Shown here piece after piece: positions 15,540 to 46,870 of a stretch of DNA of 64,000 nt (the first letter of the stretch is position 1; each line of letters starts with the position of its first letter). The translations under genes and the position numbers were made by a program. Under the pieces are notes generated by a model. The model worked only from the letters and a program-made list of their open reading frames with translations. It had not been told where the DNA came from and did not search any database. The stretch covers positions 38,808,470 through 38,872,469 of the forward strand of contig NC_053146.1 of NCBI RefSeq assembly GCF_016808335.1. Direction: 5' to 3'. This DNA is from Panicum virgatum. Lineage: Eukaryota; Streptophyta; Magnoliopsida; Poales; Poaceae.

Positions 15540-15779
15540 GGCTGCACGTGGCCCCGTGGGCGTGGGCCGTGGGTGAGGGGAGTGATAATTGATGAGAGTA
15601 AGAGAAAGTGAGGAGCAAGAGCGCAGTACGGGAAGACAGCTAGGATTGAGCGAGGCGATGGGCTTCTTGACTTTGACTTGTCAAGTCTTTAGTGGGTGTC
15701 ACGCAAAAAAAAAAAAGTCTTTAGTGGGTGGTAAAAAAAATGGTAAAAAAGGTGGCAACTGCCACACGATACTAAAAAA

Positions 15780-16036
15780 GTCTTTAGATCATGTTTATAG
15801 TTTCCAAAAGGCAAAATTTCTAGGATCATGTTATATCGAATTTTTGGACACATGCTTGTAGTTTTAAATGCAGTTAAAAAATAACTAATTACACAGTTTA
15901 ACTATTTCATACAAAATAAATCTTTTAAGTCTAATTAATTTATGATTGGACATTAATTATTAAATAACAACTAAATGTGCTACAATATCAAAACCTAAAT
16001 TTTTTGGCAAACTAAACAACCTTACTATCACACACT
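15780..16036. mobile_element. MITE remnant
   Basis: The right half has the recognisable grass MITE phrase 'gtctaattaatttatgattggacattaatt' in short pieces, 'tgctacaatatcaaaacc', and a GCAAACTAAACAACC end near 16011-16026. The left end (ATCATGTTTATAGTTTCC at about 15788) is an approximate inverted match. It is degenerate, with no clear TSD. Confidence 0.45.
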
Positions 16037-16659
16037 ACAATTCAGTATTAATTTGCTGCTGCACATTACAACCCTTACAATAATATATCCTTCTCAAACA
16101 GCTATCAACACAGACAAGTATACTACCTAAGTACAGTCTAGGTACGGTACTTCCTTCATCCTACAAAAATGCAATTCTAGTGTTTAAAATAATCTCACAA
16201 AAGAGTTTCGGTATTATAAGTTGGACAATAACTACTTGTTGAATTAAGTGGTTAGATTTGATTTACATGTCAAAACTAACTTCTAGCCATCTTTTTAGAA
16301 AGTCTAGTTAGTTGCATGAGTCAACAAACTCACCATATGTCCATGTTTTTCATGCCACCACTAATCTATTTAAAACAACTAGAATTACAATATTTATTTC
16401 ACAGAGAAATTAGCTTGTAAGTTAGTTAAAACTATGAATGAAGGTAATTCATACTTTCTTCGTCTACAAATTGAACACATAGTATTTACGAAAAATCCAA
16501 TTATATACATGTTTAACGTATGGAGGAATTTGTTCATAATTTACTTAAAACTATGAATGAAGGTCCTAGTTCATACTTTCTTCATCTATCGATTTGAGCA
16601 TATTTTATTTGAAAAAAAATCAAATTATGTACATGTTTCCCTCACTAGATTTATATCAA

Positions 16660-16977
16660 GCGAAAGGGTCTGTAGCCTAGTGGTTATATGATCCTCAGTA
16701 GCATCTTAGTTTCCGGGTTCGACTCCCTGTGGGAGAAAATATTCTAGAATTTAATGACGTTGTGCTTTCAGTGAAGGCGACATTTTTGTCGATAGCGAGA
16801 CTGACGTTTCTATCGACAGCAAAACACCTGTGGTGACTTCGTCAATCTTGAGAATTTGCCGTTTCAATCTTCGAAGATGTTCATATAGGTAGGCTTTGCG
16901 TATGTGTGGTGACTTCGTCAATCTTAAGAATATGCGTATGTTGTGAATGTATGAATTGTACTGTGTAATCTAAAAAA
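16660..16977 (+). mobile_element. tRNA-derived SINE with 13-bp target-site duplication
   Basis: The 5' part looks like a tRNA gene with pol III promoter boxes: A box TAGCCTAGTGGT (16674-16685) and B box GGTTCGACTCC (about 16718). The body continues for ~250 bp and ends in CTGTGTAATCTAAAAAAA, as in grass Au-like SINEs. A perfect 13-bp duplication, AGATTTATATCAA, flanks it at 16647-16659 and 16978-16990. It is not a functional tRNA gene. Confidence 0.85.
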
Positions 16978-18054
16978 AGATTTATATCAAAAACAATTTT
17001 GGGGTAGCAATTGATGTTATGGGTAAAGTTTAAAGTGGAATCTTGATTTTGAACATTTTCCCCCATAAATTACGCTTGTGTTGATCCGTGAAGAGAGTAA
17101 ACCACAATACATAATTCTTAGGCTAAAGATTAGTCGAAGAATATGACTTTTGATCCGTGTGAGTCCTATAAAATAAATGGAGGGAGTAAATCCTTGATTC
17201 AAAAATTACAAAATGTTTAATGCTTCCAATCTACCTTCATTTACAAAGATGAGCGGAGGGAGAATCTCCTTAGTTAAAAAAACATTATTTCAAAATACAC
17301 CTATAAGCTATCCAACATTTTGTTTGAAAGTATGCTAGGAGGTCCAGGCTGGGCTTTGGGTAATAGGGTTTGAGTCTTGGCCGTGTGGAGTATTTGAAAG
17401 CGCCTCGTAGAAATTTGTACATAGACCATTCGTTGACTTCTTGTGGACTAGCGGTCACACACAGCTTAGGCTTATCGTTACCTTATCAGCTACGGGTGGA
17501 TGAGATTGATACTTCATGACCTCTTTGAATAAAGAAATGTACCTTACTTTATGGTGTTAGTTATTCAACCAAACACTAAGTAGCTCACTTAAAGTTAAAA
17601 TTTTGCACTAATTAGGGTTGAATCCAACCAACTTAACCAAATTTAAGTTGCTGGTTAAGATGGAAGGATGCATAATTTTGCATTGTTATATATTCTTATA
17701 TCAATTCACAAGCAAAGTGCTGCTTGTCATGGTAAAGTTTTCCTATCAAAATTCAAACTAAATATTTCTCAATAACCCACTAATCGAAATGTCCCTATAT
17801 TTCTTTCATTCATGATTATTGAAGGAGTTGCTTTTACAATTACTCAATAATCTCATCCCAATCTAACTATTATTATATTAGGAGAGTCTCAACTTCCTAT
17901 CTATTTGGGAAGAGTTGGGGTAAATTATTAATTTATCCCAATTATTTTTAGAAAAATAGAAAGTTGAAGAGATTTGGTGGAGCACTATTTTTATGTAAAC
18001 TCTTCCAATATGATAGTTGGATTGAAAAACAGAAATGTGCTGAAGATACTACTC

Positions 18055-18205
18055 TAAGGCTGATCACAGCGGAGGGAGCAAGAGCAAATTTGTTCCCTCC
18101 TCGTTTCCCACGCCCTCTCTGTCTACAGTGCCAAACAGTACATCTACAGTGTCAAACAGTGTATTTGCTCCTTCATTTGTTCCCTCCACTGTGGACGGTC
18201 TAACT
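18055..18205. mobile_element. Small MITE-like segment upstream of NLR2
   Basis: The left end is GGCTGATCACAGCGGAGGGA and the right end, read in reverse, is GACCGTCCACAGTGGAGGGA. That gives ~15 matching positions of inverted terminal sequence around a centre with repeated 'acagt' and 'caaacagt' units. It resembles Tourist/Harbinger-type elements, but the 3-bp duplication is not clear. Confidence 0.4.
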
Positions 18206-18498
18206 ACACTTTTCTGAGATCACATTAAAATACCTTTGCGTATAGGTTGGCTCTGTGTATTCCCTGAAAAGTGGAAAGTATCCCATTCCGGAAGACTAAG
18301 ACCAGACTAAACGTTGTCATTAATTAAAGAAAAAGAAAACTAAACGTGGAAAGGCGTAAACAATCGTCAGTGTCATTAATTAAAGAAAAAGAAAGCGATA
18401 CTTACTTCTCTGGCCTCATCGCTCATGGCTCATTGAGTCGGAGAGCCGCCTACTACTGGTCAATCTTCTTGTCTCTGCGCTCCTCCGCCGAAACCACC

Positions 18499-21400
18499 AT
18501 GCCGCACACCCACGCCGCCGCCGTCGTGGATCGGCTACTACGCCGTCTCGCCGTCGACGCTCGCCGACTAGAGCTGCCCCCCCATATAGACGATGACATG
18601 GCGCATGTGGGCCGAACTCTGTCGAGGTTGCAAGATGTGCTGGTTAGCCTGGAGGTTCGTCCCGAGGCGCAGGAGTGGATAGGGGATATCAAGCAGGTCG
18701 CGTACGATGCGGAGGATCTGCTGGATGAATTTGAAGACCACAGTAGCACCCAAGCTCAGACGAGCGGCTGCTTTGCTGAGGTTTTTAGTTCGATATCCCT
18801 TGCCAATGCATTTGCTTTGATTCACTCTTTCCATTTGGGAGTTTTTTTCCCATTATATAGAGATGAATTTTGTATAAATTCTAGTGCGAATTACCAGGGG
18901 ATGTTTGCTTCATTCCAAATCTTGTCATTAGTAACTCAAGCTAGGTAAGTTTTGACCTTTTGACATTTTAGGTCACATGGCAACTTTATGAATTGAGAGT
19001 GCATATCCGGTAAAATGCGCCGAATATTGCAAATGTGTGCAAAATTGTTGTGGAATTTTTAAAAGTTTCTTTGAAAGTACAACTGATATGGGAGGCCATG
19101 TTCTGTACTACTACCTCCACAAAGCATTAAAAGAAAACTTTGTTGATACGAAATCTGTCTTTATTTTTCTATCGCTTGAGTTAACTCAAGCTTGATCTCA
19201 AAAATGAAAGGGGATACATTGACCACGGTTCAAAAAGGCGGAGTTAGGCGGGCGCCTAGGCGCGACTAGGCTCTAGGCGAGGGGTTCCCGCCTGGCCTAT
19301 GGGGGTAGGCGGACCCCTAGGCAGCGCCAGCTCGTCGGCGCCGGTGAGGGAGGAGGCAGAGGGAGGAGAAGGAGGCGGGGATGAGCGCCGGCGGAGGAGG
19401 AGAAAGCAGGGGACGGGCGGCGGCCGAGGTATGGACGGGCGGCGGCAGCGGCGGAGGAGTAGGAGGAGGAGGTAGGGGCAGGCGCGGAGGAGGAGGAGGA
19501 AGGCCGGCAGCAGAGGCGCGGAGGAGGCAGCGGCGGCGGCGTCGGGAACGAGCGGAGGCAGGGGCGTCGGGAAGACCGGAAGGGGAACGAGAGGAGAGGG
19601 GAGGGGATAAGGTGGGCTGTTGGGCTGCTGGGCCGGATGGGCCGGAGGAGAGGGGAGGGGATAAGGTGGGCTGTTGGGCTGCTGGGTTGTTGGGCTGCTT
19701 TGATTGGCTTATTTTTTAACTCAAGGCTTAATTGTCCTCTGTTTTTCTTTTTTTTAGAGGTATATGATGTATATGACAAGGTATACGCATGTATATGGCA
19801 CCGCCTAGCAAACCGCCTTGAAACGCCTAGGCTCGCTTAGGCTCGCCTAGGCTCTAGGCGGTGGGTCACTGCCTAGAAACCGCCTAGCGCCTTTTTGAAC
19901 ATTGACATTGACACAACATGGCCTCTCCTGTTTCTAATAATTTATCAGGAAATTTTTTGCAAAAATAATTATTGCAAAGTTTTCAAGATCGTTACTCGAT
20001 ATGATTTTCATGCATATACAAGCACAATATTTGGAGTTTCACCAGCTTTACATATATCTACTAATTGGTTTGCACTTTGCAGTCCAAATTCTTGTCAAAC
20101 ACTGTCAATGTCAATTTTTCCCTGAACATGAAGCATAAAACCTTATTAAGCTAAGGATAATTGGCTTTCATAGGATCTGGATCAAGTCTGCTCTATCCAC
20201 ACGAGTGCCTCACTTTATGCTAAGCATATTAACTTAATGACATGACAAATTTATCATCTGAACTTAAATTCAGGCTAATGTATTGTGCATTACTGCAACA
20301 ATTTGGTTCCACTTCAGAAGTTTAGTAATTCTATTTAAAATTTGTTAGTTATTACTAGAAACTAATTATCTTTGTTTTTGTTTGGAATAAATATACAGGC
20401 AGCAGCATGTTGTCATGCATGTCCATTTCTCCTGCATAGTCCTAGCGCAAATAGAATGAAAGCAATTAGAAGAAGATTGGACTTTTCAGCAAAAGATTCC
20501 ATAGTTTTCAGTCTAATGCAGTACTCTTGTCCTAATGATGAGAAATTCGATAATAGAGTATTTGATACAGCTGCAATCGTTGGAAGAGATAATGACAAAG
20601 CAAAGATAAAGGACATGCTCTTGCAAGGTAATGCAGACAAATTCTCAGTCATTGCTATTGTTGGCATGGTGGGGTTGGGGAAAACAACTCTTGCTAGATT
20701 GATTTTCCTTGACCAGGAAGAACGGTGGAATTTCGATTGTCGTATATGGATATGCTTAAATAGGAAACTGGACCTGAAAAAGGTTGCTCGTGATATAATC
20801 TTGGAATGTAATCATAGAGAAGGAAATCTCCTAGATGTTCATACAGATTTTGAGATCCAGGGAAACTTGCAGTTGCTAAAGAATTCTTTGCAACAGGCAC
20901 TTCATGGAAAACGATGTCTACTTGTCTTGGATGACCTTTCTAGCACCAATAAAAGCCAATTGGATGAATTGAAGGAAATGCTGAAGGCTACGAATGAGTG
21001 CATCAAGGTTTTAGTGACCACCTCAAGTAAAATAACTGCAGAGCTAGTGCACACCATTCCACCATACAAGTTGCGTCCTTTGTCTGAAGATGACAGTTGG
21101 ACAATATTTTCTCAGAAGGCTTTTGGGAATTTGGATGGTAATAATGCAAACCTTACAGAAGTTGGGAAGGAAATAATGAAAAGGTGTGAGGGAATACCAT
21201 TATTAACTCATTCTCTTGGTTCAATTGTACAAAATCAAGTCACAAATGTGTGGTTAGCTGCAAGGGATGAAGAAATTTGGAAACTAGAAAGAAGACTTGC
21301 CACTAAAGTAGAATTGTTTTCACCATTATATCGAATATACTATGACTTCTCCTCAACAATTAAATTGTGCATTCTATATTTATCCATATTTCCTAAAGGA

Positions 21401-24400
21401 TCTGCTATAGATAAGGAAAAACTTATTCGTCAGTGGATTGCACTTGAGATTATTGGATCAAAACATGACTCCTTGCCTCCTTACGTGCATGGGGATATGT
21501 GCATTCAAGACCTTTTGTCAACATATTTTCTCCAAGTTGAGAATATGCACTCAGTAAGTCATTACATACTTGTTAGCTTGGTAGTATTACTCTTCATGTT
21601 TGGACTATGCCTTTAGGCCTTTAACCAATAACAAATTAAGTTGCATATTTAATTATTTAACTGCTAATTCCATTCTCTTGTAAATCTTTCACATTACAAA
21701 AATTTATTGAACAACAAATACATAATAATAGTATAATTCCAATAATCTACTTTTGTATTTATAGAATACATGGCCTATGATCCATTGTGAGGAGGTATAG
21801 TACTTTAGTTTCTCATATACATTAAGTTCATTATGAAACATATGTAGAACAACCTGCTATTAAATTTTGTAGGGTTTGTTGAGTTTAGGTAACAAATAAA
21901 TATTTTATTTATACTTTGTGGAAATCACCAGAAATAGGATGAGAAGTATGGAAATAGTATGAGCATGAACAATTAGAAATTTGAAACAAACATCTTAGAA
22001 AATAATGCAACTACAAGGAAGTCATGTGATATGTTGCCGAGCGTCTAATAGCCAAATCAGCACTGTGTGGTGTGTGTGGGTGTGTTCATAAGGGTTCTTA
22101 CCCCATTTTGCTTTGATATAATGATACGAAGTTCTCCTGCCTGTTCGAGAAAAAAAAAGTCACATGACATCTAGTGCTTAAATTTATTAATGTGCTATTT
22201 ATTTTCAGGTTTATGGCATGTATGACGGAATAGTTCCTACATCACTCTATATTCATAACTTCATCCACGAATTTACAAGACATGTTGCTTGCGATGATAT
22301 TATAATTTTGGATGGCAGTGAAATGCAAAAGTACAGTGGAAAAAGGCAAGCCTTCCAGTATGCACTGTTGACATGTTACAGAGGGCAATCAACAATTCCC
22401 CTTTTACTGCTGACCAGGACAAAGGCACTACATCTCAGGAGCTCTGAGGCTATAACGATCCATAGTGAAGCATTTGAATTACTGAAGCACTTGCGTGTTT
22501 TGAATCTTAGTGGATGTTACATTGGAGAATTGCCAGCCTCTATTGGTCATTTAAAGCATCTAAAATATCTTGATGTTTCTGGCGTACAGATTCAAACATT
22601 ACCTTCCTCAATGAGTAGGTTGACAAATCTTGAGGTACTGGATCTATCAAAAACTTTTCTCAAGGAATTACCCTCTTTCATTGGTAATTTCCAAAATCTA
22701 ATATATTTAAACATGCACGGCTGTAATAAACTTCAAAATCTGCCTTCATCCCTTGGTCATCTACAAAGACTGCAGAATCTTCGGTTGTCATGCTGCAACA
22801 TTGCTGCACTACCTGACTCCATGTGCAACCTTCATGATCTTCGAAGTTTGGATATATCTAAATGCACTGAGCTGCTACACTTACCTCCTTTATTTGGTAA
22901 CTTAATGAACTTGGAGGATCTAAGCCTATCTAGTTGTTTCAACCTTAAACAGTTACCATTATCTTTTGGTAACCTTTATTTTCTCAGGTTCCTGAACCTA
23001 TCAAGCTGCTATGAACTTCAGCAGTTACCTGAGTCTTTTACTAACCTCGAGAAACTAGAAGTTCTTATACTCCGAAGATGTTGCAGGCTTCAAAATCTCC
23101 CTCCCTCCTTTGCAACAATTAAGTATCTTAGAATTTTGGATCTGGCTGACTGTGAAGCAGTTCATGTAAGTACTGAGATGTTAACAACAAGTCTGGAATA
23201 TCTGAACCTACAACGGTGTCTAAATCTGCAGACTCAGCCATACCACTTTGAAAACTTCAATAAGTTGAAGTTTCTGAATCTTTCCCAGTGCCTCCCTACC
23301 ACTGAATGCCTGAAATCTGTAAGTTACTTGTTCAACTTAGAATATCTAAACCTATCAGGAAATTTCCTTGACATACCTATTTCTTTCTCAAGGCTTCAGA
23401 AGCTGCACACATTGGACCTCACTGATTGTGCTCCAATAAATCAATCCTCTAATGTACATCAAATATGGCCAGATATAATAGGCAAAATTACAGGGCTCAG
23501 ATTTGTGCTGACAAAAGATCCAGTGTTAGTGGCCTCTACTCCAGAACCTATCAGGTGCTCTGTTGGCTATGATGAACAATCACTCATAAATACTGATGAG
23601 CTTGTTATTACTGACACCACAGGGGATTCCAGAGGCCTCAGTATTGCTAACAGGTTGAACCTGCAGAATCAACTGGAGCTTCGTTTCCTTAAGCTGGAGT
23701 GGGCTCTTACATCTCAGTCAGCTGCAGATGAATTAATTGAATATGTAAATGAAGAGGAAGTGCTGGAAAAATTCCAACCAAATCAGACTTTAGAGCAATT
23801 TGAGCTAGTTAGATATATGGGTTGTGCATTTCCTACATGGATGATGAACAATCTGGTGACTTCACTCCCATACCTTGTCACTCTTCGTTTGTTTCACCTG
23901 CATAACTGCACTGCTCTTCCTCCACTTGGCTGCCTAAGAAATTTGCGCTACTTGCATATTAAAGATATGCCCAATCTCATACACCTAGAAATGGGTCTTT
24001 CTGGGGGGCCAGAATCCTTCAGGAAATTAACTCACCTCAAATTGGAAACACTGAATTTAAAAGAGCTGCCAATACTGTTGTCTGCCAACAAGGAGAATCC
24101 CTGTTTCATGTTTCCCGCTCTTGAAGAATTATCCATTCTATTTTGCTCTAATCTTATCTTCAAACCATCTCTGCCAAAGTGTGTGAAATACGAAATAAAA
24201 GAAAGTAACATGGTTCTGCAATGTGGAGAACCCCTGGGTCCATTGTCATCTCCATCACCGGCAAAATTTGAGATAAGTGGGTGCAGAATACCTTCCGATT
24301 GGTTGCAGTGGTTTAAATCCATGCAGACTATTGTGAAGGTAGTAATGGACGGTGAAGCACTTACATCTTTAAGGCTCCTAGAGATAGAAGGCACTCAAGA

Positions 24401-27400
24401 ACCATCTGGTAGTACGATTCCAAATGAAAGTGTAAGTTCATCTTGGATGACAATGCCACGTGAATTGACCACTTGTCGTCCTATTTACTTTGGCAACATA
24501 TCTATCTTTTCTTTTCTGTCCAATAAAGAACACTTATCTCTTGTCAACTATAGGACGGTGCCACTAAATATACTGGTATTGACAGCTCAAGAATAGTGAA
24601 ACCTTCTCCGAAGTGTAGCACCGCTTCCGAACACTCAGGTTAGCACAATAGCACATAATTTTTTCCACATTAGATTGAATTGGAAACCTCTCCACTTTTA
24701 AGGAAAATGATTGGAGTTTTTGTTGTTAGTTATTTTATCTAAGTAAGTTAATATATTTGGATTTTTTCATGCACACAATTGCTATCTGGTGGTTAGAAAT
24801 TACTTGAATTTGTTCTTGAAAGAGAGTGGTCTAGGAATCCAACACTAGAAAAATATAGTTCAAAAGGGCCTAAAAGTCCCTTGTTATATCACTACATCCA
24901 AGAATGTGGAGCTAAACTGTCAACTACTACCACATGGTAGGGTACAAAAGTCGATGGTTCAGTATCGTTTTTCCATGTACAATTTGCTACTTAAAACTGA
25001 TAATGTGTGTTGCCACGTTTGTGACTTCAAGCATCAATAGGATAGTTTCTGTGCTTTGCGTGTCCATTATGGAAATAAAATTAAAAGAAAAACTGCTATA
25101 CCTACGTTATATAAGCCGTATGGACCACCTCGACATGGACTAGGGCATTGCATGCTTGTCAAACAGGATGGAAAACCCAGTCTATGCATCTAGAGGACCT
25201 TGTTTTTACATCTTATTAACATTACATCTCAATTACTTAGTTTACAATAAAGAAACATGACCAAAAAGTAAGCTTCAAGGGGTGAGAATGATTGACCTGA
25301 CACTATGCTTGTGAATCTGGTTAAGTGTGTGTTAATATTAGTGTAAAAGAATATTAATTGGAAGTTTTATGTTATACTGCATCAGAAATTATTGAGGGGT
25401 AAAATAAGTTTGTAGAATCAGTTCTAATTAAATTCATTAGTTCATCAACCTTTTGTATTATTAGAGGTCCTAGGCTATACTTCCAGCTACTACAATGGAA
25501 TAACAAGCATTCCATTCTACACTAATGATGTTGAATCTCCTATATCAATGAATTATGCATCTAGTAGTATACTTTTGTTTACAAAAATGAATGCTTACAA
25601 TTAAGATTTTAATGCAGATATGTAATAATATTTTAAATAAAATATATAAATTTATCTAAACTGTAATATAATAGACCTACATAAGACCACCAATTTTGTG
25701 CTCTTTCGCTTTGTATACAGGCTGTTTCGTGATCGTGCGAGGCATTGATTGTTCGAGTTCCGATTGGGACTTCGATTGACTTGTCCGGGTTCCGATTAGG
25801 ATTCTGATTGACGGACCAAGGAATTATTGCTTGTTATAGAAATATAGTAGAGAAATTGTAATTAGCATAATTTACTCTCATGGAGTATGAATATTATTGA
25901 AAATATATTTATTTTAAAATATATAGGGGTACTTTTGGTAATTTTTTCTCATAATTGCATATGTTGGTAATTTAGATGTAAATTAGGGGGTTACTTTATA
26001 TTATCTTTCATAATGGCAAATGTGGATAATTTAGATAAATATTAGGGATTATTTTATATTACTTTTGTAGTGGTAGTGGTGGGTAATTTAGATATAAATT
26101 TAAGGTTCACTTTTCTACTGTTATAATGCAGCAGTGGGTAACTTTATAGAACAATAATTGAGGTCGAATGTTTTTAACTTCTATGAGAATTTTTAGGATC
26201 ATCCTTTTGATAACAACAATATGGGCTTGTATTGGTGGTATGTTGACTTTAGGTATGCAGAAAGACCATCTACTTCATGTTAATCAATTTTTTAAGTTGC
26301 AAAGCATTAGATTTCATAGGCTCTCGACTAATCTTTAACTGTACCCTCACTTTCTAATCCAATACTCCAAGTGCCATTTCTATTTAGAATGTCAAAAAGC
26401 AAACTTGAAATAAAATTTAGTATGAGATATAATTAGTGACACACGATGAACATTTTTCAATATCCTGCCTTATCAGTTTACTTTTTCAGTGGATCCTATT
26501 TCGTCCTCTAAGCTAAGCATGCCATCCAAGGAGATCCCATCAACTTTAGGCATGCTGGAGAAGTCAGAAATGTTTGCACAAATACGTGGAGATGGATCTT
26601 TAAACTTAAGCCTTGAGCAGGTTCGAAAGGTTACTCGGAATTTTTCATCTTTATTAAAGTTAGGTGAAGGAGGAATCTGGACAGTCTACAGGGCAGTATT
26701 ACCTGATAACCAGATTGTTACCATCCGAAGAGCTAAACAGGTTGTTCCAAATTCTCTTATTTTCTTTCTCTGTGTCCTTGCTTATCAATTGGTTATTCAT
26801 CAACGTCATATTAGTCATCCATGTGCTTGGTTTTTCTGACAAGATAATTCTTGTTGGGCTACTTTTTTACTACAATTATTAATTGAACTGTTATTACAAT
26901 GAATTGAGGTAATCTCCAATCTCCACAGAGATAAAGGTAACCTGTTTGCATTGTATGAGTTCTGGTTAAAACGGCCAGGAACTGAAGGACAAGCTAAAGA
27001 GTACAAACCAGTACATTTACCACAGGGTTATAATTGATCAACCTGATTGAACCAGTACATTTCAGTATATTTAATGTAAATACTGCATAATATGCACTTG
27101 AACTAGCTAGTAATTACAGACTGTATAATCTGTTGCCAGGGTCACATGAAAGAGGCAAGACATCTCATGAAAGTGAGTCTCCTTACAGAAATTAATCACC
27201 AGAGTCTGGTGAGGTTCCTAGGTTTTATTGATGAAGGAAATGAATGTATTAGGATTACAGAGTATGTTCCGAATGGCACTCTTAGACAACACCTACACGG
27301 TATGTAAAGTTTTGTAACTTGTTCCTTTTTATGGGATAGTTTGAATTACATCAATTATTTCTTAAAACATATCTGCAGATCAACATAAGAGAATTCTGGA

Positions 27401-30400
27401 TTTTAATCAACGGATAGTGATTGCCCTTGATGTTGCAATTGCATTGACTTACCTTCATTTATCTTGTGGTAAGAATGCTGTATTCATTGCTTGAACTATT
27501 TTTTTGGGTGAAATATGTGCTTGCTTGAATGTTGGTTCACTATGCTTTCATGAATTTGCACAGTTCTCATATTTTACAAATACTAATCATAGCATGAACC
27601 AAATGGAACAAAGGTATCTCATAGGAACATCTATTGCAATTTTCTCTTCATTACTAATTACAATTTGATATGGAAATCTGTTAGAGTATATTTGGCAGTA
27701 TAGGAAATATCTCAAGGAGGCTTCCTTCCCTCCAAGTGTTGTACCCCTATATATTCGCCCTCTAGACTCAATGCAATACAATCCACGATTCATATACAAT
27801 CTATCCTTCTTATATGGTATCACGAGTCTAGGTTTCTGAAAGCTAGTAGGGCTCAGAATAATTGATTGATTAGGTTGCAAAGCACATGTACAAGATATAT
27901 AGGCAAGGATGTTCTAGGGTTTATGGAAACAATACCAATCAACGGAGATCCTTGCCCAAGGATGTCCTAGGGTTTATGGAAACAATACCAATCAATGGAG
28001 ATCCTTGCCTAATCTAATACTTGACCTAGAAGTCATCCCGGGAGGGGCCGGCACATGGCACATAGGCCCGTGTGGCCAGCAGGGCTAGGAGCCATACAGC
28101 CCAAAGGGCCAGCTGAACCATGCTACCCATGTTATCTAACACGCCCCCGCAGTCTGATCGTCGGTAGCGCAAACGTTCAAGATGGACCTGAACTCCCTGA
28201 ACACTGAGGACGGAAGGCCCTTGGTGAAGATGTTGGCGTACCGTTACGATGTAGGAACATGCATGACGCGTACATCACCAATAGCAACGTGCTCTCAGAC
28301 GAAGAAAAGATCAATCTCAATGTGCTTGGTGCGCTGATGATGAATGGGGTTGGAGGACATGTAGACAATGCTGATGTTGTTGCAGTAGACCAACGAAGCA
28401 TGCTGAGGCGGAGCATGGAACTCGAGAAGAAGCTGTCGCAGCCAGGTGACTTCAACAATGCCATTAGCCACAATGCGATACTCGGCTTTGGCACTAGATC
28501 TGGAAACCGTGTTCTGCCGCTTCGACGACCAGGAAACTAAGTTGTCCCCGAGAAACATAGCATAACCCGATGTGGATTTGTGAGTATCTGGACAACCTGG
28601 CCAGTCAGCATCGGAGTATACAATCAGCTCACTCTGCGAAGACGGACGAAGGAGAAGGCCCAGGTGTAGAGTCCCTCTGATGTAGCGAAGGATAGTAGGA
28701 TACGCTTCAAAGTGGCTAGGTGTGGCTCACGAGGATCATGCATGCGCAAGCAAACATGCTGAACTGAATAAGAAATATCCGGCCTGGTGAAAGTGAGGTA
28801 GTGAAGAGCACTCGCAAGACTCCAAAAATCTGAAGCATCCTAAATAAGTGGACCATCAGCCGCCAATTTGGGGTTGGTGTCCACAATAGTAGAGCACGGA
28901 TTGCACCCAGCCATACCAGCATGGTCCAGAATATCCAGCATGTACTGCCACTGATAGAGGAATAAACTAGAGCCATAGCGCTATACGTGCATACCTAGGA
29001 AGTGATGAAGCTCGCCAGGATCCTTCATAGAGAACTGCTGCAAACCCTGAATGGTGCACTGGAGAAGATGCTGTGAGGACAATGTCATCAACGTAAAGGA
29101 GCAAGTAGAAGGTGTCGACTGTAGCCGAATAGAGAGGTGTCTGACTTGGCCTTGACAAATCCCAGATTGAGTAGATATGCAGAAAAGCGACTGTACCAAG
29201 CACAAGGAGCCTGTTTCAACCCGTAGAGAGATCTATTAAGGCGACAGACAAAATTTGGGTCAGGCTGAGTGTAGTAGATAGCCTCAGACAGGATCACGTG
29301 AAGGAATGCATTCTTGACATCAAGTTGATGAATAGACCATCCACGAGAGAGATCCAGGGGCAGTAATGTGCGAATTGTAGCCGGCTTCACAGCTGGGCTG
29401 AAAGTCAAGATAGTCTCAGACAGGATCCCGTGAAGGAATGTATTCTTCACTTCAAGTTGATGAATAGACCATCCACGAGAGAGATCCAGGGGCAGTAATG
29501 TGCGAACTGTAGCCGGCTTCACAGCTGGGCTGAAAGTCTCAGCAAAATTCATGCCTGGCCGCTGAGAGAAACCGCAAAGAACCCACCAACCCTTATAGTG
29601 CTCGCTAAGAGAAACCGCAAAGAACCCACCAACCCTTGTAGTGCTCAAGAGAAACATTAGACATGAACTTGTGCTTGAAGATCCACTTCCTAGAGACGAC
29701 AGGGCGCTACGGAAGGTCTTTGGGATGGGCGACAAGGGCATAGCATGGTACAGTGTCGGAAGATGAAAACCATGCTTGGCCCTATGTCATCATGGGGTGT
29801 TAGAGTGTGCAGCGGAATTCGGTCCAACCCTCTATACCCATGAGCTAGCGTCGTACCAGGCCTTAGGTCCACCGGAGCCCAATCAACCAAGGCCTCAAGC
29901 CCAACTCAATCCAAAAGACTAGCCTAATGGGTGAGGACTGCCCCCACCTTATATATTGGGCTCCCCACCATCAATTTTCGATGTGGGACTAAATCTAACA
30001 GTCTATCCCGTTACACATCAGGCCCAACTCTTCCATCACATACAACCCATGCAATCTTCCGGAAGACGTTCTCCAGACCCCGAGTCACTCTCCAGCCACA
30101 CACAACCCGTGCGACCTTCCGGAGACGTTCACAGGCTCTCCCGTCACCATGTGACCCCGGAGATATTCCTGATTTCCCGACCTTCAGCTTGGATACCACT
30201 TGTTAGAGTGTGCAGTGGAATCCGGTCCAGCTCGCTATACCCACGAGTTGGCGTCCTACCAGGCCTCAGGTCCAACAGAGCCCAACCAACCAAAAGCCTT
30301 AGGCCTAACTCAACCCAAAGGACTAGTCTGATGGGTGAGGACTGCCCTATCTTATATATTGGGCCCCTACCATCAATTTCCGATGTGGGATTATATCTAA

Positions 30401-33281
30401 CATGGGGTGCTGGTTCACGACAGGTGGAACTGGAATGGCAGCTTCGGGAGAGCCGGAGGACCGGCTGCTAGAGCAGACAGGGAGCGCCGAGTGTAGACGT
30501 AGCGGAGCTCGCGGGTCAGCACCAGAGGTCGGCAGTCGGTCGTTGGAGAGCCAGTCAGAGCCGGCTACGGACTAGCAGAAGTTGGTTGGGGGCCGGTCGC
30601 AGCTGGTTGCCGAGGGCCAGCCGGTGCACCAGCGGTGGTCGGCTGTGCAGCAGTGGGGGCCGGGGGGCTTTTTGGTGGCATAGCCGTGCCTGGGAGGAGG
30701 GGTGCTGCACTTGGCATCGGGCTGGTCGCACTTGGAAGAGGCCCGGCCTGGCGCAGGCATGCCATTAGAGGCCACAAGCGGCTATGCAGAGGCAAGAGGA
30801 GCGCCGTTGGGGGGTCCTGCAGGGTGTAAAAAATGTGTCGATCCTATGGGGGCCAGCAGATGATTAGTGAAATCATCCAGAAAATCAAAATACACCTGGT
30901 TGGATGAAGGGTGATGCTCAGTGAAGGGAAACACCATCTCATCAAACGTGACATGGTGCAAGATGATGGCGGTGTTAGAGATAAGATCAAGGCAGCAGCA
31001 TCCCTTGTGGTGAGTAGTATAGCCAAGGAAAATGCAAAGAGTGGAGCGAGGTGCGAGTTTATGGCTAGCTGTGGCGGAAAGGTTGGGGGTAACACTTGCA
31101 CCCAAAGACGTTCCTTAACCGTATGACGGAAGGATGCCATGAAGGGCGAAATGTGGTGTGCCGAACTGGAGCGTCTTAGTGGGCAAGATGTTGAAGAGAT
31201 AAGTGGCCGTGGTGAGAGCTTCATCCCAATAGGAGGACGACATGTTGGCCTGAAATAGGAGTGAGCGAACAACATTATTATTGGTGCGAATAATGGGGAG
31301 CTAGGCTGGTGGAGTGGGCTAGCAAGCCACGACCCATGGGGGAAACGGTGCGCGTGTGGGGCCAGGGTTCAGGGGGGTTTCTCGATCGGGGTCATATGGT
31401 CCCTTCTTAATGCAATGGAGTGGGGGTGGTTCTTCCCCCACCGGTCGAGCTTTTTTTCTTTCCTTTCTCAATAAAGTAAGAAAACGCTATAGAGTCCAAA
31501 TATAATACTCGGAACTCGTGAAAAGATTGTCTAGAAGCTTCCGAAAATTGGACTTTGCTCTAAGAAAATTGAGAATAAATGCCAGCATAATCTAGAAGAT
31601 TCTCAGAAGGTCTAGAAGATGGATAAGAGTATTTGAAAAGATACTCACATCCCAAAATTGAATATTTAGGGGTGTGACTACAGGCTCTTGTAAAAGAAGG
31701 AAGTACTTAATTATGGAAATTTCGCTACCTTGTGTGTGCTATCCTCAGATGGAGGGATATTTGGAAGCCTTTTAGTGAGGCACCAGTCTTACGCTGTTGT
31801 TCTTTCTATTCTGAGGGGATCGTAGAGGGCTGAACTTTGGTTCACCCTTTCTGCGTCTTCATCTCTATATGGCATGATGTCATGGGTTGGTGTTCATCGG
31901 TTAATCTCAGAAGTTCACAGGTGCAATTTGTTCCACATGAAGATCGGACCGCAATGTTGCGCTTGCACATCAGTTTGCTACCTTTGAGACCAACAATTTG
32001 ATTTACAAGACATATAGGTAGATATGGAATTTTGGAACATTATGAAAAGAAAAGGAAATGTTCATTTTCTTTCACCTCCCACTTTCCTGAATAAAATCAA
32101 ACTAATACATCAAATTAACAGAAGATGAGAACATTCTGAATCCCAATAGCATTACATGACTGTATTAGATGATCTATTTTATATATTTTCTACAGTGATT
32201 TCTGTCATATGATCCTGTGATATGTGTTGCGGGCATGAATGTGTTGCCAGCATTCAAAGACCATGTTAGAAAATTATTCTCACTATAAAAGAGAACAAAA
32301 TAGAATAGGAGAAGCCAATAATGGACGCAAATTTGTGATGCGAGTTGTTGGACAGAACTATTTGTTATGGATAACATAAATAAGCTGGTGAAGTATTTAT
32401 ATTATGTGTTTTATGGCTTCTAATTTGTATGTGCTTATTAACAGGGCAAGCTGTAATCTGTTACAATTTGAAGACATCAAACATTCTACTGACAGAGAGC
32501 TACAGAGCAAAAGTATGCTGTTCTATACTGTCAGAAAGTGGTTACGTTATGCCAGCTAGTGGGGCAGTAGGCTACAGTGATCCAGAGTACTTACGGACAT
32601 TTGAGCTCACTGCTAAATCTGATGTGTACTCTTTTGGAATAATACTCTTAGAAATCCTATCTTCTCACGGGCCGCAAGATTGGAATGTATTGATGAACCA
32701 CCAGAATAGCTCCAGTTGGACAATGGAACGTGTTGTACAATGGGTAAGTTTCAAGCCTGATCAAATTGCTGTGAAGTATTGGTTGTTGAGAATAATTTTA
32801 GTAGTGTAGTTGGCCTTGGGCCATGAAAATGTGGAATGCTGCTCCACTCTATGTTCTTAATTCTGTATGCTCGCAGGCTCTCGAGAAATTTTATGACGAC
32901 CTCATGAACGAGGTACTGGATTACCGTATGGAGGACCGTGTGGCCGGAGAAGTGCTTAGAGACTGGCTTAGCTTGGCATTAAGTTGCGTGGCTCCACGTG
33001 GCAATGATCGCCCAAGCATAGAAGTGGTCGGGGAGCGTCTATGGAAAATATGGAAAGACCATCGAAGAAACATAGGAGAGACGCACGAGTACCAAGGAAG
33101 TTGGGAAGAGTTCGTTGAACAAGAGGGAATTCTGAGGCATCAAAAGTCTGCGCCCAAGAGAATTTGGGGCCCTTCGGCAGCAGAGGAGGAATGGTCTGGG
33201 TATATTAAGCAGATTGAATTGGTCCAACAAGGTTACTCACGATCTGCTTCATTCGACGATATGACAGTATCTCCTCGGTAG
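18499..33281 (+). CDS. NLR2: CC-NB-ARC-LRR with C-terminal integrated pseudokinase
   Basis: Nine exons: 18499-18780, 20399-21553, 22209-24431, 24554-24638, 26490-26740, 27140-27299, 27379-27468, 32445-32743 and 32877-33281 (stop). They total 4950 nt, about 1649 aa. All junctions are GT-AG and the phases (0,0,0,1,0,1,1,0) stay in frame. Exon 1 is a short CC with [11 protein letters not shown]. Exon 2 is the NB-ARC: P-loop GMVGLGKTT, Walker [28 protein letters not shown] as [11 protein letters not shown], and [17 protein letters not shown]. Exon 3 starts with MHD altered to YIHNFIHEF and carries ~13 LRRs plus a second C-terminal LRR block with FPTWMMNNL and [13 protein letters not shown]. Exon 4 is a 28-residue linker. 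Exons 5-9 encode a CRCK-like kinase fold lacking catalytic residues. Intron positions around the CC, NB-ARC and MHD match NLR1, so the two are inverted paralogues. The chief doubt is whether the exon 4-exon 5 junction is used in vivo. Confidence 0.8.
19226..19900. mobile_element. GC-rich TIR element in NLR2 intron 1
   Basis: The left end is CGGTTCAAAAAGGCG (19226-19240) and the right end is CGCCTTTTTGAAC (19888-19900). Subterminal GGCGCCTAGG/CGCCTAGGC repeats lie in both orientations. The flanking 8-mers ATTGACCA and ATTGACAT match at 6 of 8, consistent with a hAT-type duplication. The middle is G/A-rich, with a ~50-bp tandem duplication (19610-19700: GGATAAGGTGGGCTGTTGGG units). The long glycine/arginine frames are compositional. 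Confidence 0.6.
22027..22160 (+). mobile_element. LINE 3' fragment in NLR2 intron 2
   Basis: The sequence ends 'tgatataatgatacgaagttctcc' (in part), then TGCCTGTTCGAGAAAAAAAAA, a grass LINE-type tail with poly-A. The flanks AAGTCATGTGA and AAGTCACATGA are an imperfect (9 of 11) candidate target-site duplication. It is 5' truncated. Confidence 0.5.
27682..27812 (+). repeat. Copia-type LTR remnant in NLR2 intron 7
   Basis: It starts TGTTAGAGTATATTTGG and contains CCCTATATATTCGCC. TGGTATCACGAGTCTAGG follows, a close relative of the initiator-Met-tRNA primer-binding site. The start and TATA-like region resemble the LTR of the element in NLR1 intron 1. Confidence 0.5.
27840..31300 (-). mobile_element. 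Decayed Ty1-copia element (RNase H, RT, integrase remnants) in NLR2 intron 7
   Basis: Minus-strand fragments are in order for a copia pol. Integrase C-terminal pieces lie at 31275-30782 ([14 protein letters not shown]). RT pieces lie at 29741-29088 ([39 protein letters not shown]). RNase H lies at 28558-28295 ([20 protein letters not shown]). Frames are broken by stops and by two local tandem duplications (about 29285-29530 and 29577-29650). A TRIM (29798-30402) interrupts it. LTR-like sequence beginning TGTTAGATAACATGG on the minus strand lies near 28141; it contains a 53-bp tandem duplication (27903-28008). No second LTR was found at the right end, so the element is truncated. Confidence 0.75.
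29798..30402 (-). mobile_element. TRIM (terminal-repeat retrotransposon in miniature) with perfect TSD
   Basis: Two ~203-bp direct repeats (29798-30000 and 30201-30402) begin TGTTAGAGTGTGCAG and end ATCTAACA. Only 200 bp lie between them. The flanking 5-bp duplication is TGGGG at 29793-29797 and 30403-30407. On the minus strand the LTR contains CCCACATCG and TATATAAGGTGGG, and is followed by TGGTATCCAAG, a Met-tRNA-type primer site (about 30188-30198). No coding capacity. It is inserted in the copia remnant, so it is younger than that element. Confidence 0.9.
31300..32444 (+). other. Remainder of NLR2 intron 7
   Basis: It starts with T-rich, LINE-tail-like sequence (CTTTCTCAATAAAGTAAG at about 31464) and continues as AT-rich intron to the acceptor TTATTAACAG at 32435-32444. 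No gene. Confidence 0.45.
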
Positions 33282-42244: not shown

Positions 42245-45200
42245 ATGAATCCAGAAGAGGTAGAAGCAAAAAAGATGGAAGAAGAGGCTGCAATGAAGGC
42301 AGCAACTAGTGGTGATTCAGGGGGAATTAAAAAAGTGAGATGAGGAATGAGATGAGATGTATGATCCAAGAGCTTATGGGTTTGGGTTTAATTGGTGCCA
42401 AAGCAAATGCGGGTCCATCTGAGTTGAAATTGGAGCTCATGCCAAATGATGTGAAGCTAGATGGTAGTAAGAATTATTTGAGCTGGTATAGGAGAGTACG
42501 TGTCCTTCTAGGAGCTAAGGGAGCGGAGCATTATTTGGAGGAGACCTGTGTTGAGCCGGTTGATAAGCTCAGCACCGAGTGGAGCGTTTGGCATGCAACA
42601 AACTCGGTGATAGTGGCATGGTATTGGCATCAATGTCTCCCACTGTTAGCAAGAGGGTAGAAGCCATGCGCACTGCATCACAGATATGGAGTAACATATA
42701 CTCTCAGATGGGAAATGTGATGATGATGATGGAAATTCAGGGCAAGGCAGATGCAGTGAAATAGGAAGGAAGACCAGTGGAGCAATATGCAAGTGAGCTT
42801 CAGTACTTGTGGGAAGAGCTAGATCACTATGCCCCACTCCAAATGGAGACTCCACGGGATGCTCAGGCTGTTCATAAGTGGGTGGAGGATAGGAGAGGGA
42901 CCCACTTTCTGAAGAATCTAGACTCGGAATTTGAGAGTAGGAGAGCTGCCTTTTGTCATCAGGAGAGTCTTCCTACCATGGATGAGGCCGTTTCAGCCAT
43001 GATTGATGAAGATAGTAGGCTTCGAGTGATGGGTAGTGGCAATTCTATGAAGCCGGCCTATATTGCAGTTGAAGACAGGGAATGCTATAATTGTGGAGAA
43101 AAGGGACATATGAGTTATAATTGTCCTAATCCAAGAGGTAGTGGTGGTCGAGGTGGAACTCGTGGAGGTCGTGGTAGTTCTCGTGGAGGATATGGATGAG
43201 GCCATGGTTACCGTGGTGGAGGCCGTGTAGAGGCCGTGGTGGCCCAAGGGCCAACATGGCGGTCAGTGAGGATACTCTGTCTGTCACTTTGACAGGAGAG
43301 CAAGTCAAACAATGGGAGCAATGGCAGAGAGGCAAAGCTTCTGAGAGCTCCACCAGTACCTCGTATGATCGTATGACTTCAACCTCCAACAACTTCGGTA
43401 ACTTTGCCGACTACACCCGCATGGACGAAGGTACTCGAGCACAGGCACTTGCATCTTCATGTAGGCATCACATAGATTGGGTCATAGATTCAGGAGCATT
43501 CAAACATGTTACTGGCATGTCTAGTTCTTTCAAAACATACAATCCTTACACTCATTCTGAATTCATTCAAATTGCTGATGGCACTTCCCAACTTATCCAT
43601 GGTGTAGGGTCTTTAGAGTGTACACCTTCTCTTAGCCTGTCATCAGTTCTGCATGTTCCATCATTTCCAGCCAATTTCCTTTCTATGAGTTCAATCATTG
43701 ATCAATTCAAGTGCACAATAACATTTGATAAAAATTCTTGTGTCTTTCAGGAGAGGACTGGGAAAAGGATTGGGACTGGAGTCAGGCGTAATGAGTTCTG
43801 GTTCATCAGTCATGAGGAGTCAGCATTGAAAGCAGCTGCTGAAGGAGATGTGAAGGAAATTCTGCTACCCCATTGTCGGTTAGGACATGTATCTTTTGAA
43901 AGCTTAAGTCGGTTGTATCCTGCTATGTTTAAGGGAGTGGACAAAAGTAAACTTGTTTGTGATGCATGTGAGCTTGGCAAGCATACTAGATCCATCTATC
44001 CTAGTATTGGTCTTCGCAGTTGTGAACCATTTATTCTAATACACTCAGATGTTTGGGGTTCCTGTTCAGTCACTTTTGTGAGTGGTGTTAAATGGTTTGT
44101 CACCTGTATTGATTGTTACACTCGTATGACTTGGATCTACATGTTTAAGCATAAAAATGAGGTGTTCCAGTCATTAGTGGCAAATCAGTTCAATGCAAGG
44201 GTTCAAGTCATTCGAAATGATAATGGAACAGAGTATGTGAATAATGAATTCAGATTATATCTTTCAGATCAAGGGATCATTCACCAAACAGCTTGCCTAG
44301 GAACTCCACCTCAGAATGGTGTAGCTGAGAGGAAGAATCGTCATTTGTTGGAGGTAGCAAAATCTCTAATGTTTCAGATGAATGTACTCAAGTATTTATG
44401 GAGTGAGGCAGTGATGACAGCTACATACCTTATCAATCGAATGCCATCAAGAATACTTGGTATGAAATCACCTGTTGAGCTTCTGTTGGGAAGGCATGAC
44501 TTCAAAGTCCCACCCAGGGTCTTTGGTTGTGTTTGTTTTGTGAAGGATCATCGGCCAATGGTGGGAAAGTTGGATCCTCAAGCTGTTAAGTGCATATTTG
44601 TGGGTTATGCTTCTACTCAGAAAGGGTACAAGTGTTGGGATCCTATTGGTAAGAGGTTTGTGAGCATGGATGTGACTTTTCATGAGGAAGAACCATACTA
44701 TATAAGGAAGGATGACCTGGATCAATTTTTGGAGGAGTTCTCTCCGATCAATGAGAATGACCATAGAGAAGGGGAGGCTAGAATAAATAGTCAAGGTAGT
44801 GATCCAGCGAGTGGGGTTTCAGGAGTGATTATTGGAGGAATAGTTCCACAAGATGTGGAGGTGATAGGCCCGGAGATATCAAGTAATGATGAGAGTCATG
44901 ATGAAAGAAATGGTGAAGGTAATGGTGATGATGAACCAAACATTGATAGTCAGGAGGAGATGGAGGACAATGATGTTGTGGTTGTTGGGACAATTCCATG
45001 CCCAATGGGTGAGAAAGTGAATGAGAAGCAGGAGGAGCAAACCAGGTAGAGAGAGCAACCTATAGTGTACTTTCGAAGGCGGTTTAAGAAGCAGGGGGAG
45101 CAACCCAGGTAGAGGGAGCAACCTATAGTGTATTTTCGAAGGCGGTTTAAGAAGCAGAGGAGCAACCACAACCTGAACGTATTGAAGCTCCAGTCCCACA

Positions 45201-46870
45201 TCCCTCTCCAGACTCCTCTCCAGCAAGCTCATCAATCCCGACTGGTAATATTCCTTCCACCCTTGAGCATGTAGAATTGCCCCTCGCACAGCTTAAAGAT
45301 CCTAGAGCTAATGCTGGAAAACCTCCTTCTCGGTATGGCTTTGAACATGACATTGCTAAGTATGTCTCGTATTCTAGTGTCTCACCTGCATATAGGGCCT
45401 TTGTTGCTTCACTACAAACAATGTCTACTCCGAAGGATTGGAGGGGTTCTAAACAGGATCTGAAGTGGAAGGATGCAATGAAAGAAGAGCTACTTGCCCT
45501 TCTAAAGAACGAGACATGGAAAGCTTGTTCATCTTCCAGAGGGAAAGAAGGCAGTTGGTTGCAAGTGGGTCTTCACAGTAAAGCAGACCCCTGAAGGAAA
45601 GGTTGATAGGTACAAAGCAAGGTTGGTTGCAAAGGGGTATAGTCAGACATATGGAATTGACTATGATGAAACCTTTACACCTGTGGCAAAAAATGGGCAC
45701 AGTAAGGACCCTGATCTCATGTGCGGCCAACTTTGGGTGGCCACTTCATCAGCTGGATGTGAAGAATGCATTTCTCTATGGTGATCTGCAGGAGGAGGTC
45801 TATATGGAAATTCCTCCTGGATTTGCAAATGAACAAATTCTTGGGAAGGTATGTAGACTCAAGAAGTCACTCTATGGCCTGAAATAGTCACCACGTGTAT
45901 GGTTTGATAGGTTCAGGCAAGCAGTATGTGATATGGGGTACTCTCAATACAATGGAGATCACACTGTCTTCTATAAACATCAGGGCTCTCGTATCACTAT
46001 TCTAGCCGTGTATGTAGATGATATAGTGATCACTGGAGATGACGTGGAGGAAATCAAGAAACTAATGGAAAGGCTCGGTAAAGCTTTTGAGGTAAAGGAT
46101 CTTGGACCACTTAGATACTTTCTCAGAATTGAGATTGTTAGGTCACCAAAAGGATTGATCTCTTCTAAAGGAAGTATGTCCTTGATCTGTTGGCGGAGAC
46201 GGGAATGCTTGGTTGCCGTCCATGTGGTTCACCTATTGATAAGAACCATCAAATATGTGCGGAGTCAGGTGACCTAGTGGATCGGGATAGATATCAGAGA
46301 CTAGTTGGTTGGTTGATTTATCTTTGCCATATAAGACCCGACATTTCTTATATAGTAAGTGTGGTGAGCAGGTATATGCATGATCCTAGAACTGGACATA
46401 TGGAGGTGGTTTATCAAATTTTGAGATACCTGAAAGGAACCCCTAGAAAGGGGTTATGGTTTAAGGCAAATCAACATCTGAATCTGGAAGGCTATTGTGA
46501 TGTTGATTGGGCAAGTAGTAGGGATGATCGGAGATCTGCATCTGGATATTGTGTGTTTGTGGGTGGTAATCTTGTTTCATGGAGGAGCAAAAAACAAGCT
46601 TTGGTGTCTCGGTCTACTGCAGAGGCCGAATATAGAGCAATGGCATTGGCTCTGTGTGAGATGATGTGGTTAAAAGGTCTGTTAAAGGAGCTTCGGGTGT
46701 TGAAGAATGAAACTATATTGCTCCATTGTGATAATGTAGCAGCGATCAACATAGAGAATAATCCAGTTCAGTTTGATCGTATGAAGCATGTGGAGATTGA
46801 TAGGTTTTTTATCAAGGAGAAAATTGTTAGTGGGACTTTAAAGCTAGAGGATGTCAAGTCTTGTAATTAA
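42245..46870 (+). pseudogene. Copia gag-pol, broken by frameshifts and stops
   Basis: Gag starts at ATG 42245 (MNPEEVEAKKMEEE) and is frameshifted near 42345 and 42640. A zinc knuckle, CYNCGEKGHMSYNCP, lies at about 43083-43127. A stop at 43197 precedes the protease (DWVIDSGAFKHVTG, about 43477). Integrase follows with the HCRLGHVS zinc region and catalytic D-D-E contexts (HSDVWG, RNDNGTEY, PQNGVAERKNR). A stop at 45047 and several frameshifts follow. RT includes [12 protein letters not shown] (about 45750) and the YVDD active site (about 46011). RNase H ends with SRSTAEAEYRAMA (about 46608). The domain order protease-integrase-RT-RNase H fixes it as Ty1-copia. At least four disruptions make it non-autonomous. 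Confidence 0.9.

What the first reader, a model, noticed from the sequence alone, without database searches (positions are those of the whole stretch)
24554..33281. NLR-kinase fusion: a CRCK-like domain spliced onto an LRR protein
A 28-residue linker exon (24554-24638) ends in phase 1 and the next exon (26490) starts in matching phase with VDPISSSKLSMP, leading into a receptor-like-cytoplasmic-kinase fold. No independent promoter-proximal start was seen. NLR-kinase fusions are rare; barley Rpg5 is a known case, but a fusion with a calmodulin-binding-RLCK-like domain is not one I recognise as described.
Basis: partly seen in the sequence, partly recalled or inferred. Interest (0 to 1): 0.9.

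Follow-up and report, generated by a model that had tools for sequence, protein, structure and literature searches.

The report
Immune receptor with built-in dead kinase
A grass immune-receptor gene really is fused to a copy of a host signalling kinase, CRCK3; [quoted passage not shown]

Summary
The fusion is real. Nine exons (18499-33281, +) join in frame into a 1649-residue CC-NB-ARC-LRR protein with a C-terminal kinase fold. Database proteins on contigs too short to hold the introns match it: P0141 reads across exons 1-5, including both joints in question (6 differences in 1286 residues), and P0001 equals part of exon 6 through exon 9. The kinase derives from CRCK3 (RLCK-IV), the protein guarded by the Arabidopsis NLR SUMM2.

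(1) It is a pseudokinase: the VAIK lysine, HRD and DFG are gone and the activation loop is shortened, as in most fused relatives. (2) The fusion is found across grasses (Setaria, Urochloa, maize, Eragrostis, Phragmites, wheat, barley, oat, Lolium), with an apparent second, catalytically intact CRCK3 in the same place in Festuca. (3) It lies head-to-head with an intact NLR (15539-8128, -) orthologous to rice Pi5-1; rice Pi5-2/Pii-2 is reported to carry a NOI domain instead.

Best reading: sensor of a Pi5/Pii-type pair with a CRCK3-derived pseudokinase as integrated decoy. Anatomy shown; decoy role inferred. New variant of a known kind.

The parts
18499..18780 (+). Fusion exon 1: coiled-coil (Rx_N) start
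   Evidence: Model; Rx_N; the joint to exon 2 is read through in P0141
20399..21553 (+). Fusion exon 2: NB-ARC and part of the winged helix; P-loop GMVGLGKTT
22209..24431 (+). Fusion exon 3: end of winged helix and LRRs
24554..24638 (+). Fusion exon 4: 28-residue linker ending in phase 1. If intron 4 is kept, the next codons are Gly-stop (EHSG*), giving an NLR-only product
   Evidence: the maize model P0168 ends the same way (TSELSG)
26490..26740 (+). Fusion exon 5: CRCK3-type juxtamembrane stretch and first part of the kinase N-lobe (VAIK Lys replaced by Arg)
   Evidence: joint 4-5 read through in P0141
27140..27299 (+). Fusion exon 6: kinase
   Evidence: P0001 starts inside it (residue 1356)
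27379..27468 (+). Fusion exon 7: kinase
   Evidence: in P0001
32445..32743 (+). Fusion exon 8: kinase C-lobe start; HRD is CYN, DFG is CSI, activation loop shortened
   Evidence: in P0001
32877..33281 (+). Fusion exon 9: kinase end plus a C-terminal tail ending TVSPR-stop
   Evidence: in P0001
27469..32444 (+). Fusion intron 7 (4976 nt), with copia-type retrotransposon pieces on the - strand
   Evidence: RVT_2 at 29088-29786; absent from P0001
8128..15539 (-). Partner NLR, head-to-head, orthologous to rice Pi5-1: 5 exons (15539-15225, 12804-11677, 10868-9516, 9428-9263, 8345-8128), 1059 residues
   Evidence: frame; Rx_N, NB-ARC, LRR; Pi5-1 P0254, 72%; tree. Last exon chosen by eye and phase; no transcript of the partner examined
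15540..18498 (.). 2.96-kb stretch between the two start codons of the divergent pair

Best explanation
This is the sensor gene of a head-to-head NLR pair at a Pi5/Pii-type locus. Shown here: a CC-NB-ARC-LRR protein carries, after a short linker exon, a CRCK3-derived domain whose catalytic residues are gone; its neighbour is a Pi5-1 ortholog. Inferred: the pseudokinase is an integrated decoy. A pathogen effector (or a host module tampered with by one) that normally acts on CRCK3-type cytoplasmic kinases binds or alters the domain, this releases the sensor, and the Pi5-1-like partner carries the signal to defence and cell death. Having lost catalysis and the MAPK-type Ser/Thr-Pro sites of CRCK3, the domain can offer a binding surface without interfering with normal CRCK3 signalling.
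For: Intact spliced frame and matching short-contig proteins; a maize-type protein P0125 holds NLR and kinase in one 1621-residue frame on a 5240-nt contig. 27 of the 120 rows listed (307 hits) carry both NB-ARC and kinase domains. One fused clade of 18 rows, 100/100, in the kinase tree, with shared catalytic losses: VAIK Lys is Arg in 23 of 29 fused-side rows (isoforms included) and Lys in 15 of 15 free CRCK3. Kinase fold predicted for the maize ortholog. In Festuca the same NLR lineage carries an intact CRCK3 nested among free grass CRCK3s, so the same host kinase seems to have been taken up twice in the same place. Reviews list Pi5-1/Pi5-2 as head-to-head with an integrated NOI domain at the C terminus of Pi5-2 and CRCK3 as guarded by SUMM2.
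Against: No effector, interactor or phenotype is known to me for this gene. No Pi5-2/Pii-2 sequence was available, so orthology of the fused NLR to it rests on position alone. Truncated isoforms exist or are annotated (P0141, P0168, P0002). Neither gene has a canonical MHD (IHN in the sensor, MDN in the partner, MHN in Pi5-1), so sensor and helper roles cannot be read from motifs. The Festuca case rests on one gene model. Some relatives carry a different kinase (RLCK-VII type: P0161, P0163, P0289), so the slot is not specific to CRCK3.
Confidence: 0.62

Rival explanations
1. Built-in guardee: the domain is a fused version of the SUMM2-CRCK3 arrangement and reports the state of a MAP-kinase cascade through its own phosphorylation or its native CRCK3 partners, rather than by binding effectors.
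For: Same kinase family as the SUMM2 guardee; MPK4 phosphorylation of CRCK3 keeps SUMM2 silent (passages). 13 of 29 fused-side rows, window included, end in a Ser-Pro-Arg tail that a MAP kinase could use.
Against: The Ser/Thr-Pro sites before the kinase (3 in 12 of 15 free CRCK3 rows, 2 in one, 4 in two) fall to 0-2 in the CRCK-pseudokinase fusions and to 0 in the window; under the SUMM2 model a form that cannot be phosphorylated would be permanently active.
Confidence: 0.2
2. Catalytically active signalling kinase, as Sarris et al. proposed for NLR-integrated kinases.
For: The Festuca relative P0144 keeps VAVK, HRD and DFG.
Against: The window lacks the VAIK lysine, HRD and DFG; of 29 fused-side rows only the Festuca row has Lys, HRD and DFG together.
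Confidence: 0.04
3. Passenger in decay: the fused tail has no function and is slowly degrading.
For: Long stem branch (0.71) of the fused clade and catalytic loss; three fused rows are cut short within the kinase (P0145, P0147, P0176).
Against: Full-length frames in panicoid, chloridoid and pooid grasses, shared derived motifs, retained KSDVYSFG-type core and an added tail; decay would have produced stops.
Confidence: 0.08
4. Two adjacent genes joined by annotation or read-through.
For: Maize P0002 is annotated as a separate kinase; maize P0168 as an NLR without it.
Against: P0141 and P0125 read across the joint without the intron; phases match and the 1.85-kb intron 4 is GT-AG.
Confidence: 0.04

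Closest known systems
Rice Pi5-1/Pi5-2 (Pii-1/Pii-2) NLR pair
   Same: Head-to-head CNL pair with a C-terminal integrated domain in one partner (review table); the window partner is a Pi5-1 ortholog
   Different: Rice sensor reported to carry a NOI domain that binds Exo70-F3; here a CRCK3-derived pseudokinase. Sequence of Pi5-2 not compared
Barley Rpg5 with RGA1
   Same: C-terminal kinase on a CNL, head-to-head with a second NLR (review table)
   Different: Listed as a serine/threonine kinase fusion; recalled, not tested: of RLCK-VII type. Here RLCK-IV/CRCK3 type with the catalytic residues lost
Arabidopsis SUMM2 guarding CRCK3
   Same: An NLR whose watched protein is CRCK3 (passages)
   Different: There NLR and CRCK3 are separate proteins and CRCK3 is an MPK4 substrate; here the CRCK3 relative is part of the NLR
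NLR-kinase fusions surveyed by Sarris et al. 2016
   Same: Kinase as integrated domain
   Different: That survey reports catalytic Lys and Asp conserved in all fusions (passages); here they are lost in most fused rows examined
Free CRCK3 (RLCK-IV)
   Same: 50-52% identity over the aligned kinase part in the nine free grass rows
   Different: N-terminal and membrane part absent, catalytic residues lost, added C-terminal tail

Membership tests
NLR with integrated domain | NB-ARC and LRR plus a non-canonical domain in one open frame | tested here: met
NLR with integrated domain | One transcript covers NLR and extra domain | tested here: met
   P0141 (exons 1-5), P0001 (exons 6-9), maize-type P0125 (NLR to kinase end); contig DNA not read, so RNA origin is inferred; no single window-species sequence covers the whole
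Head-to-head NLR pair | Two divergent NLR genes with a shared intergenic region | tested here: met
   2.96 kb between starts
Head-to-head NLR pair | Functional co-dependence of the two NLRs | not testable with these tools
   Needs genetics
Pi5/Pii locus | Partner is a Pi5-1 ortholog | tested here: met
   72% to rice Pi5-1; one clade of 7 rows, 100/100
Pi5/Pii locus | Sensor orthologous to Pi5-2/Pii-2 | not tested
   No Pi5-2 sequence in the results; position only
Pi5/Pii locus | C-terminal NOI domain in the sensor | tested here: not met
   Kinase instead; a narrow NOI-like pattern scan of the 343 database proteins held gave no hit
CRCK3 / RLCK-IV | Sequence relationship to CRCK3 | tested here: met
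CRCK3 / RLCK-IV | Active kinase motifs | tested here: not met
   VTIR, CYN, CSI
CRCK3 / RLCK-IV | Calmodulin binding | not testable with these tools
   Needs a binding assay
Rpg5 type | Orthology of NLR and kinase to Rpg5 | not tested
   No Rpg5 sequence at hand
Integrated decoy | Domain bound or modified by an effector | not testable with these tools
   Needs a binding assay

The most novel reading that the evidence does not exclude
Grasses independently put the SUMM2 guardee CRCK3 inside an NLR: an ancient CRCK3-derived pseudokinase has served as the built-in bait of the Pi5-1-paired sensor since before the main grass lineages split, was renewed from CRCK3 in Festuca, was exchanged for RLCK-VII kinases in some copies and perhaps for NOI in rice. 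CRCK3-type kinases would then be a central effector target in grasses as in Arabidopsis.
Probability: 0.45. Interest if true: 0.85.

Novelty: new variant of a known kind. Interest (0 to 1): 0.7.

Why it matters
It links two textbook arrangements: an NLR guarding a separate CRCK3 (SUMM2) and an NLR that carries its bait (Pii-2, RGA5). It gives a counterexample, found in many grasses, to the printed view that NLR-integrated kinases are catalytically intact, and it makes testable whether the Pi5-1 partner works with sensors bearing quite different baits. The fusion is present in maize, wheat, barley and millets, and some public gene models split it (maize P0002) or name it as a receptor kinase (Setaria P0122).

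Tried and rejected
Active signalling kinase: rejected for the window on its residues. Two genes joined in error: rejected on P0141 and P0125. Pseudogene: rejected on the intact frame here and in other genera. A NOI domain: a narrow pattern scan of the 343 database proteins held gave no hit. Rfam gave nothing above gathering scores. The sorghum RMES1 paper (passages) proved unrelated. My first exon-9 start was one base off and was corrected.

What the counts rest on. The 29 fused-side rows are the window plus 28 database rows; they include four maize rows, two Setaria rows, P0001 (the window's own sequence), two RLCK-VII rows and three rows cut short in the kinase. Two maize isoforms (P0132, P0133) and P0081 were not put in. 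So 23 of 29 counts rows, not species. The NLR tree holds 36 chosen rows; the tool warned of long branches joined among the outgroup rows. One search listed 120 of 307 hits and one search listed 120 of 249, so absence of rice or Brachypodium fusions is absence from those lists.

Full report
WHAT IS THERE. The finder's joint is present as described. Exon 4 (24554-24638) ends in phase 1 and exon 5 opens at 26490 in the matching phase. The complete model has nine exons from ATG 18499 to TAG 33281, eight GT-AG introns, no internal stop and 1649 residues (the first version had exon 9 off by one base). Pfam gives Rx_N, NB-ARC, winged helix, LRRs and a protein kinase (PF07714, 6.7e-26 in the full protein). 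A rough control that drew 20,000 same-length stretches from introns 4, 5, 6 and 8 found none open for exons 5, 8 or 9, and a product of at most about 4e-16 over exons 5-9.

EXPRESSION. Two unnamed database proteins of JGI origin match the model. P0141 (1318 residues, 33 member sequences, contig 5649 nt) follows residues 47-1332 with 6 differences in 1286 and passes all four joints from exon 1 to exon 5; it then reads into intron 5 and stops. P0001 (294 residues, 21 members, longest contig 1219 nt) is identical to residues 1356-1649 and lacks the 5-kb intron 7. The window distances, about 8.1 and 6.1 kb, exceed the contig lengths, so both should come from spliced RNA; this is an inference, as the contig DNA was not read. 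No single window-species sequence covers the whole fusion, but P0125, nearly identical to maize rows in the trees, carries NLR and kinase in one 1621-residue frame on a 5240-nt contig; it has some 15 extra residues at the exon 3-4 joint, as if a later donor were used. Against this: maize P0168 ends TSELSG at the intron-4 donor, and in the window intron-4 retention would likewise give EHSG-stop, so an NLR-only isoform is likely; and maize P0002 is annotated as a separate kinase that seems to begin in intron 4.

WHAT THE KINASE IS. Fused relatives and a few composite kinases lead the list; [quoted passage not shown] In a tree of 47 rows, 18 fused kinases form one clade (100/100, stem 0.71) inside the Poales CRCK3 group; the node joining them to the free grass CRCK3s is weaker (92/64). 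The fused copies have lost catalytic residues: in the window the VAVK of CRCK3 is VTIR, HRD is CYN, DFG is CSI, and about eight activation-loop residues are missing. Among 29 fused-side rows (28 database rows, some of them isoforms of one locus, plus the window) the VAIK position is Arg 23, Lys 3, Ser 1, Asn 1, gap 1; the three Lys are the Festuca row and two RLCK-VII rows. The HRD Asp is Asn in 21, Asp in 5 (among them wheat and barley), Gly 1, gap 2; the DFG Asp is kept in 2. All 15 free CRCK3 rows examined keep the Lys, HRD and the DFG Asp. The Ser/Thr-Pro sites in front of the kinase, 3 in 12 of 15 free rows, are reduced to 0-2 in the CRCK-pseudokinase fusions (0 in the window), and 13 of 29 fused-side rows end in Ser-Pro-Arg, an ending none of the 15 free rows has. 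A model of the maize ortholog P0002 has mean pLDDT 74.4 with a well-predicted kinase core and poorly predicted ends; the best PDB match is the SYMRK kinase domain (TM-score 0.89 by target length, 0.63 by query length).

CONSERVATION. Of the 120 rows listed, 27 carry NB-ARC and a kinase. They name 17 species in Urochloa, Setaria, Paspalum, Eragrostis, Zea, Phragmites, Triticum, Aegilops, Hordeum, Avena, Alopecurus, Lolium, Festuca and Eleusine; three rows (Eleusine, Aegilops tauschii, Lolium rigidum P0147) are cut short in the kinase. Since these include both great grass lineages (BOP and PACMAD, recalled), the fusion should predate their split. Some rows differ. Festuca P0144 has an intact CRCK3 that falls within free pooid CRCK3s although its NLR part falls among the pseudokinase-bearing pooid NLRs: an apparent second integration or replacement, resting on one gene model. 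Lolium P0161 and Alopecurus P0163 carry another kinase, of RLCK-VII type by its motifs (recalled), on NLR parts 62-64% identical to the window's. P0289, an unnamed sequence close to Panicum virgatum P0294 (905 of 918 residues), shows the start of a similar kinase.

THE PAIR. On the minus strand, 2.96 kb from the fusion's start, begins an intact second NLR of five exons and 1059 residues (domains). Its relatives include rice Pi5-1 at 72% (P0254) and Panicum hallii at 92% (P0241). In the NLR tree the Pi5-1 clade (7 rows, 100/100) is sister to the clade that holds the fused sensors (23 rows, 100/99). The two genes have the same exon plan: the partner's fourth exon also ends in phase 1, where the fusion changes to CRCK3 exons. 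Orientation was seen only in the window. A review lists Pi5-1/Pi5-2 as head-to-head with a NOI domain at the C terminus of Pi5-2 and Pii-2 (PMC9528088, passages). No Pi5-2 sequence was available, so 'same slot, different bait' rests on position and on the Pi5-1 orthology.

MECHANISM. The likely working is that of known pairs: the gene with the integrated domain senses, the partner executes. The bait would be CRCK3. In Arabidopsis CRCK3 is phosphorylated by MPK4 and watched by the NLR SUMM2 (passages: PMC10698375, PMC13307163; the original paper is not held). Loss of catalytic residues and of the phosphorylation-type sites favours a binding decoy over a reporter of MAPK activity. Effector binding, helper function and disease relevance are inferred. 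Motifs do not help to assign roles: neither gene has a canonical MHD.

PRINT. Sarris et al. 2016 call NLR-integrated kinases frequent and intact, with the catalytic Lys and Asp conserved in all (PMC4759884, passages); this family departs from that. Bailey et al. 2018 list Rpg5 and other NLR-kinases and do not mention Pi5 in the main text (PMC5819176, passages). In ten searches of open-licence papers no title, abstract start or passage that I saw describes a CRCK-NLR fusion; subscription papers, supplements and preprints were not searched.

ORIGIN OF THE WINDOW. Not given. A Panicum species, perhaps P. virgatum, is likely: partner 92% to P. hallii, near-identical JGI proteins, and a JGI relative close to a P. 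virgatum protein. The held-genome search did not complete.

Noticed in passing
window 4780-5298 (-), perhaps part of a longer gene to about 6.9 kb: DUF220 domain next to the Pi5-1-like partner; in Leersia a Pi5-1-like protein (P0255) runs into the same domain, so the neighbour is conserved or was mis-joined there.
   Followed up: partly
window 28026-31368 (-): Copia-type retrotransposon pieces inside intron 7 of the fusion, with short internal duplications; absent from P0001.
   Followed up: partly
window 42765-46870 (+): Copia-type element with zinc knuckle, integrase and SH3-like domains.
   Followed up: no
window 55443-56323 and 62763-63643: Direct repeat about 0.9 kb long, 96-97% identical, 7.32 kb apart.
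   Followed up: no
P0161, P0163, P0289 (database proteins): Relatives of the fused NLR carry an RLCK-VII-type kinase instead of CRCK3, with altered catalytic motifs in P0161 and P0163.
   Followed up: partly
P0144 Festuca glaucescens: Same NLR lineage with an apparently intact CRCK3: a possible second, younger integration.
   Followed up: partly
window 24635-24643: The intron-4 donor itself holds an in-frame stop (TCA GGT TAG), so keeping intron 4 gives an NLR-only protein; maize P0168 ends the same way.
   Followed up: yes
window about 13.6-13.75 and 14.8-15.0 kb (-): Two similar stretches inside the partner's intron 1, seen by eye; perhaps the ends of a small retroelement.
   Followed up: no
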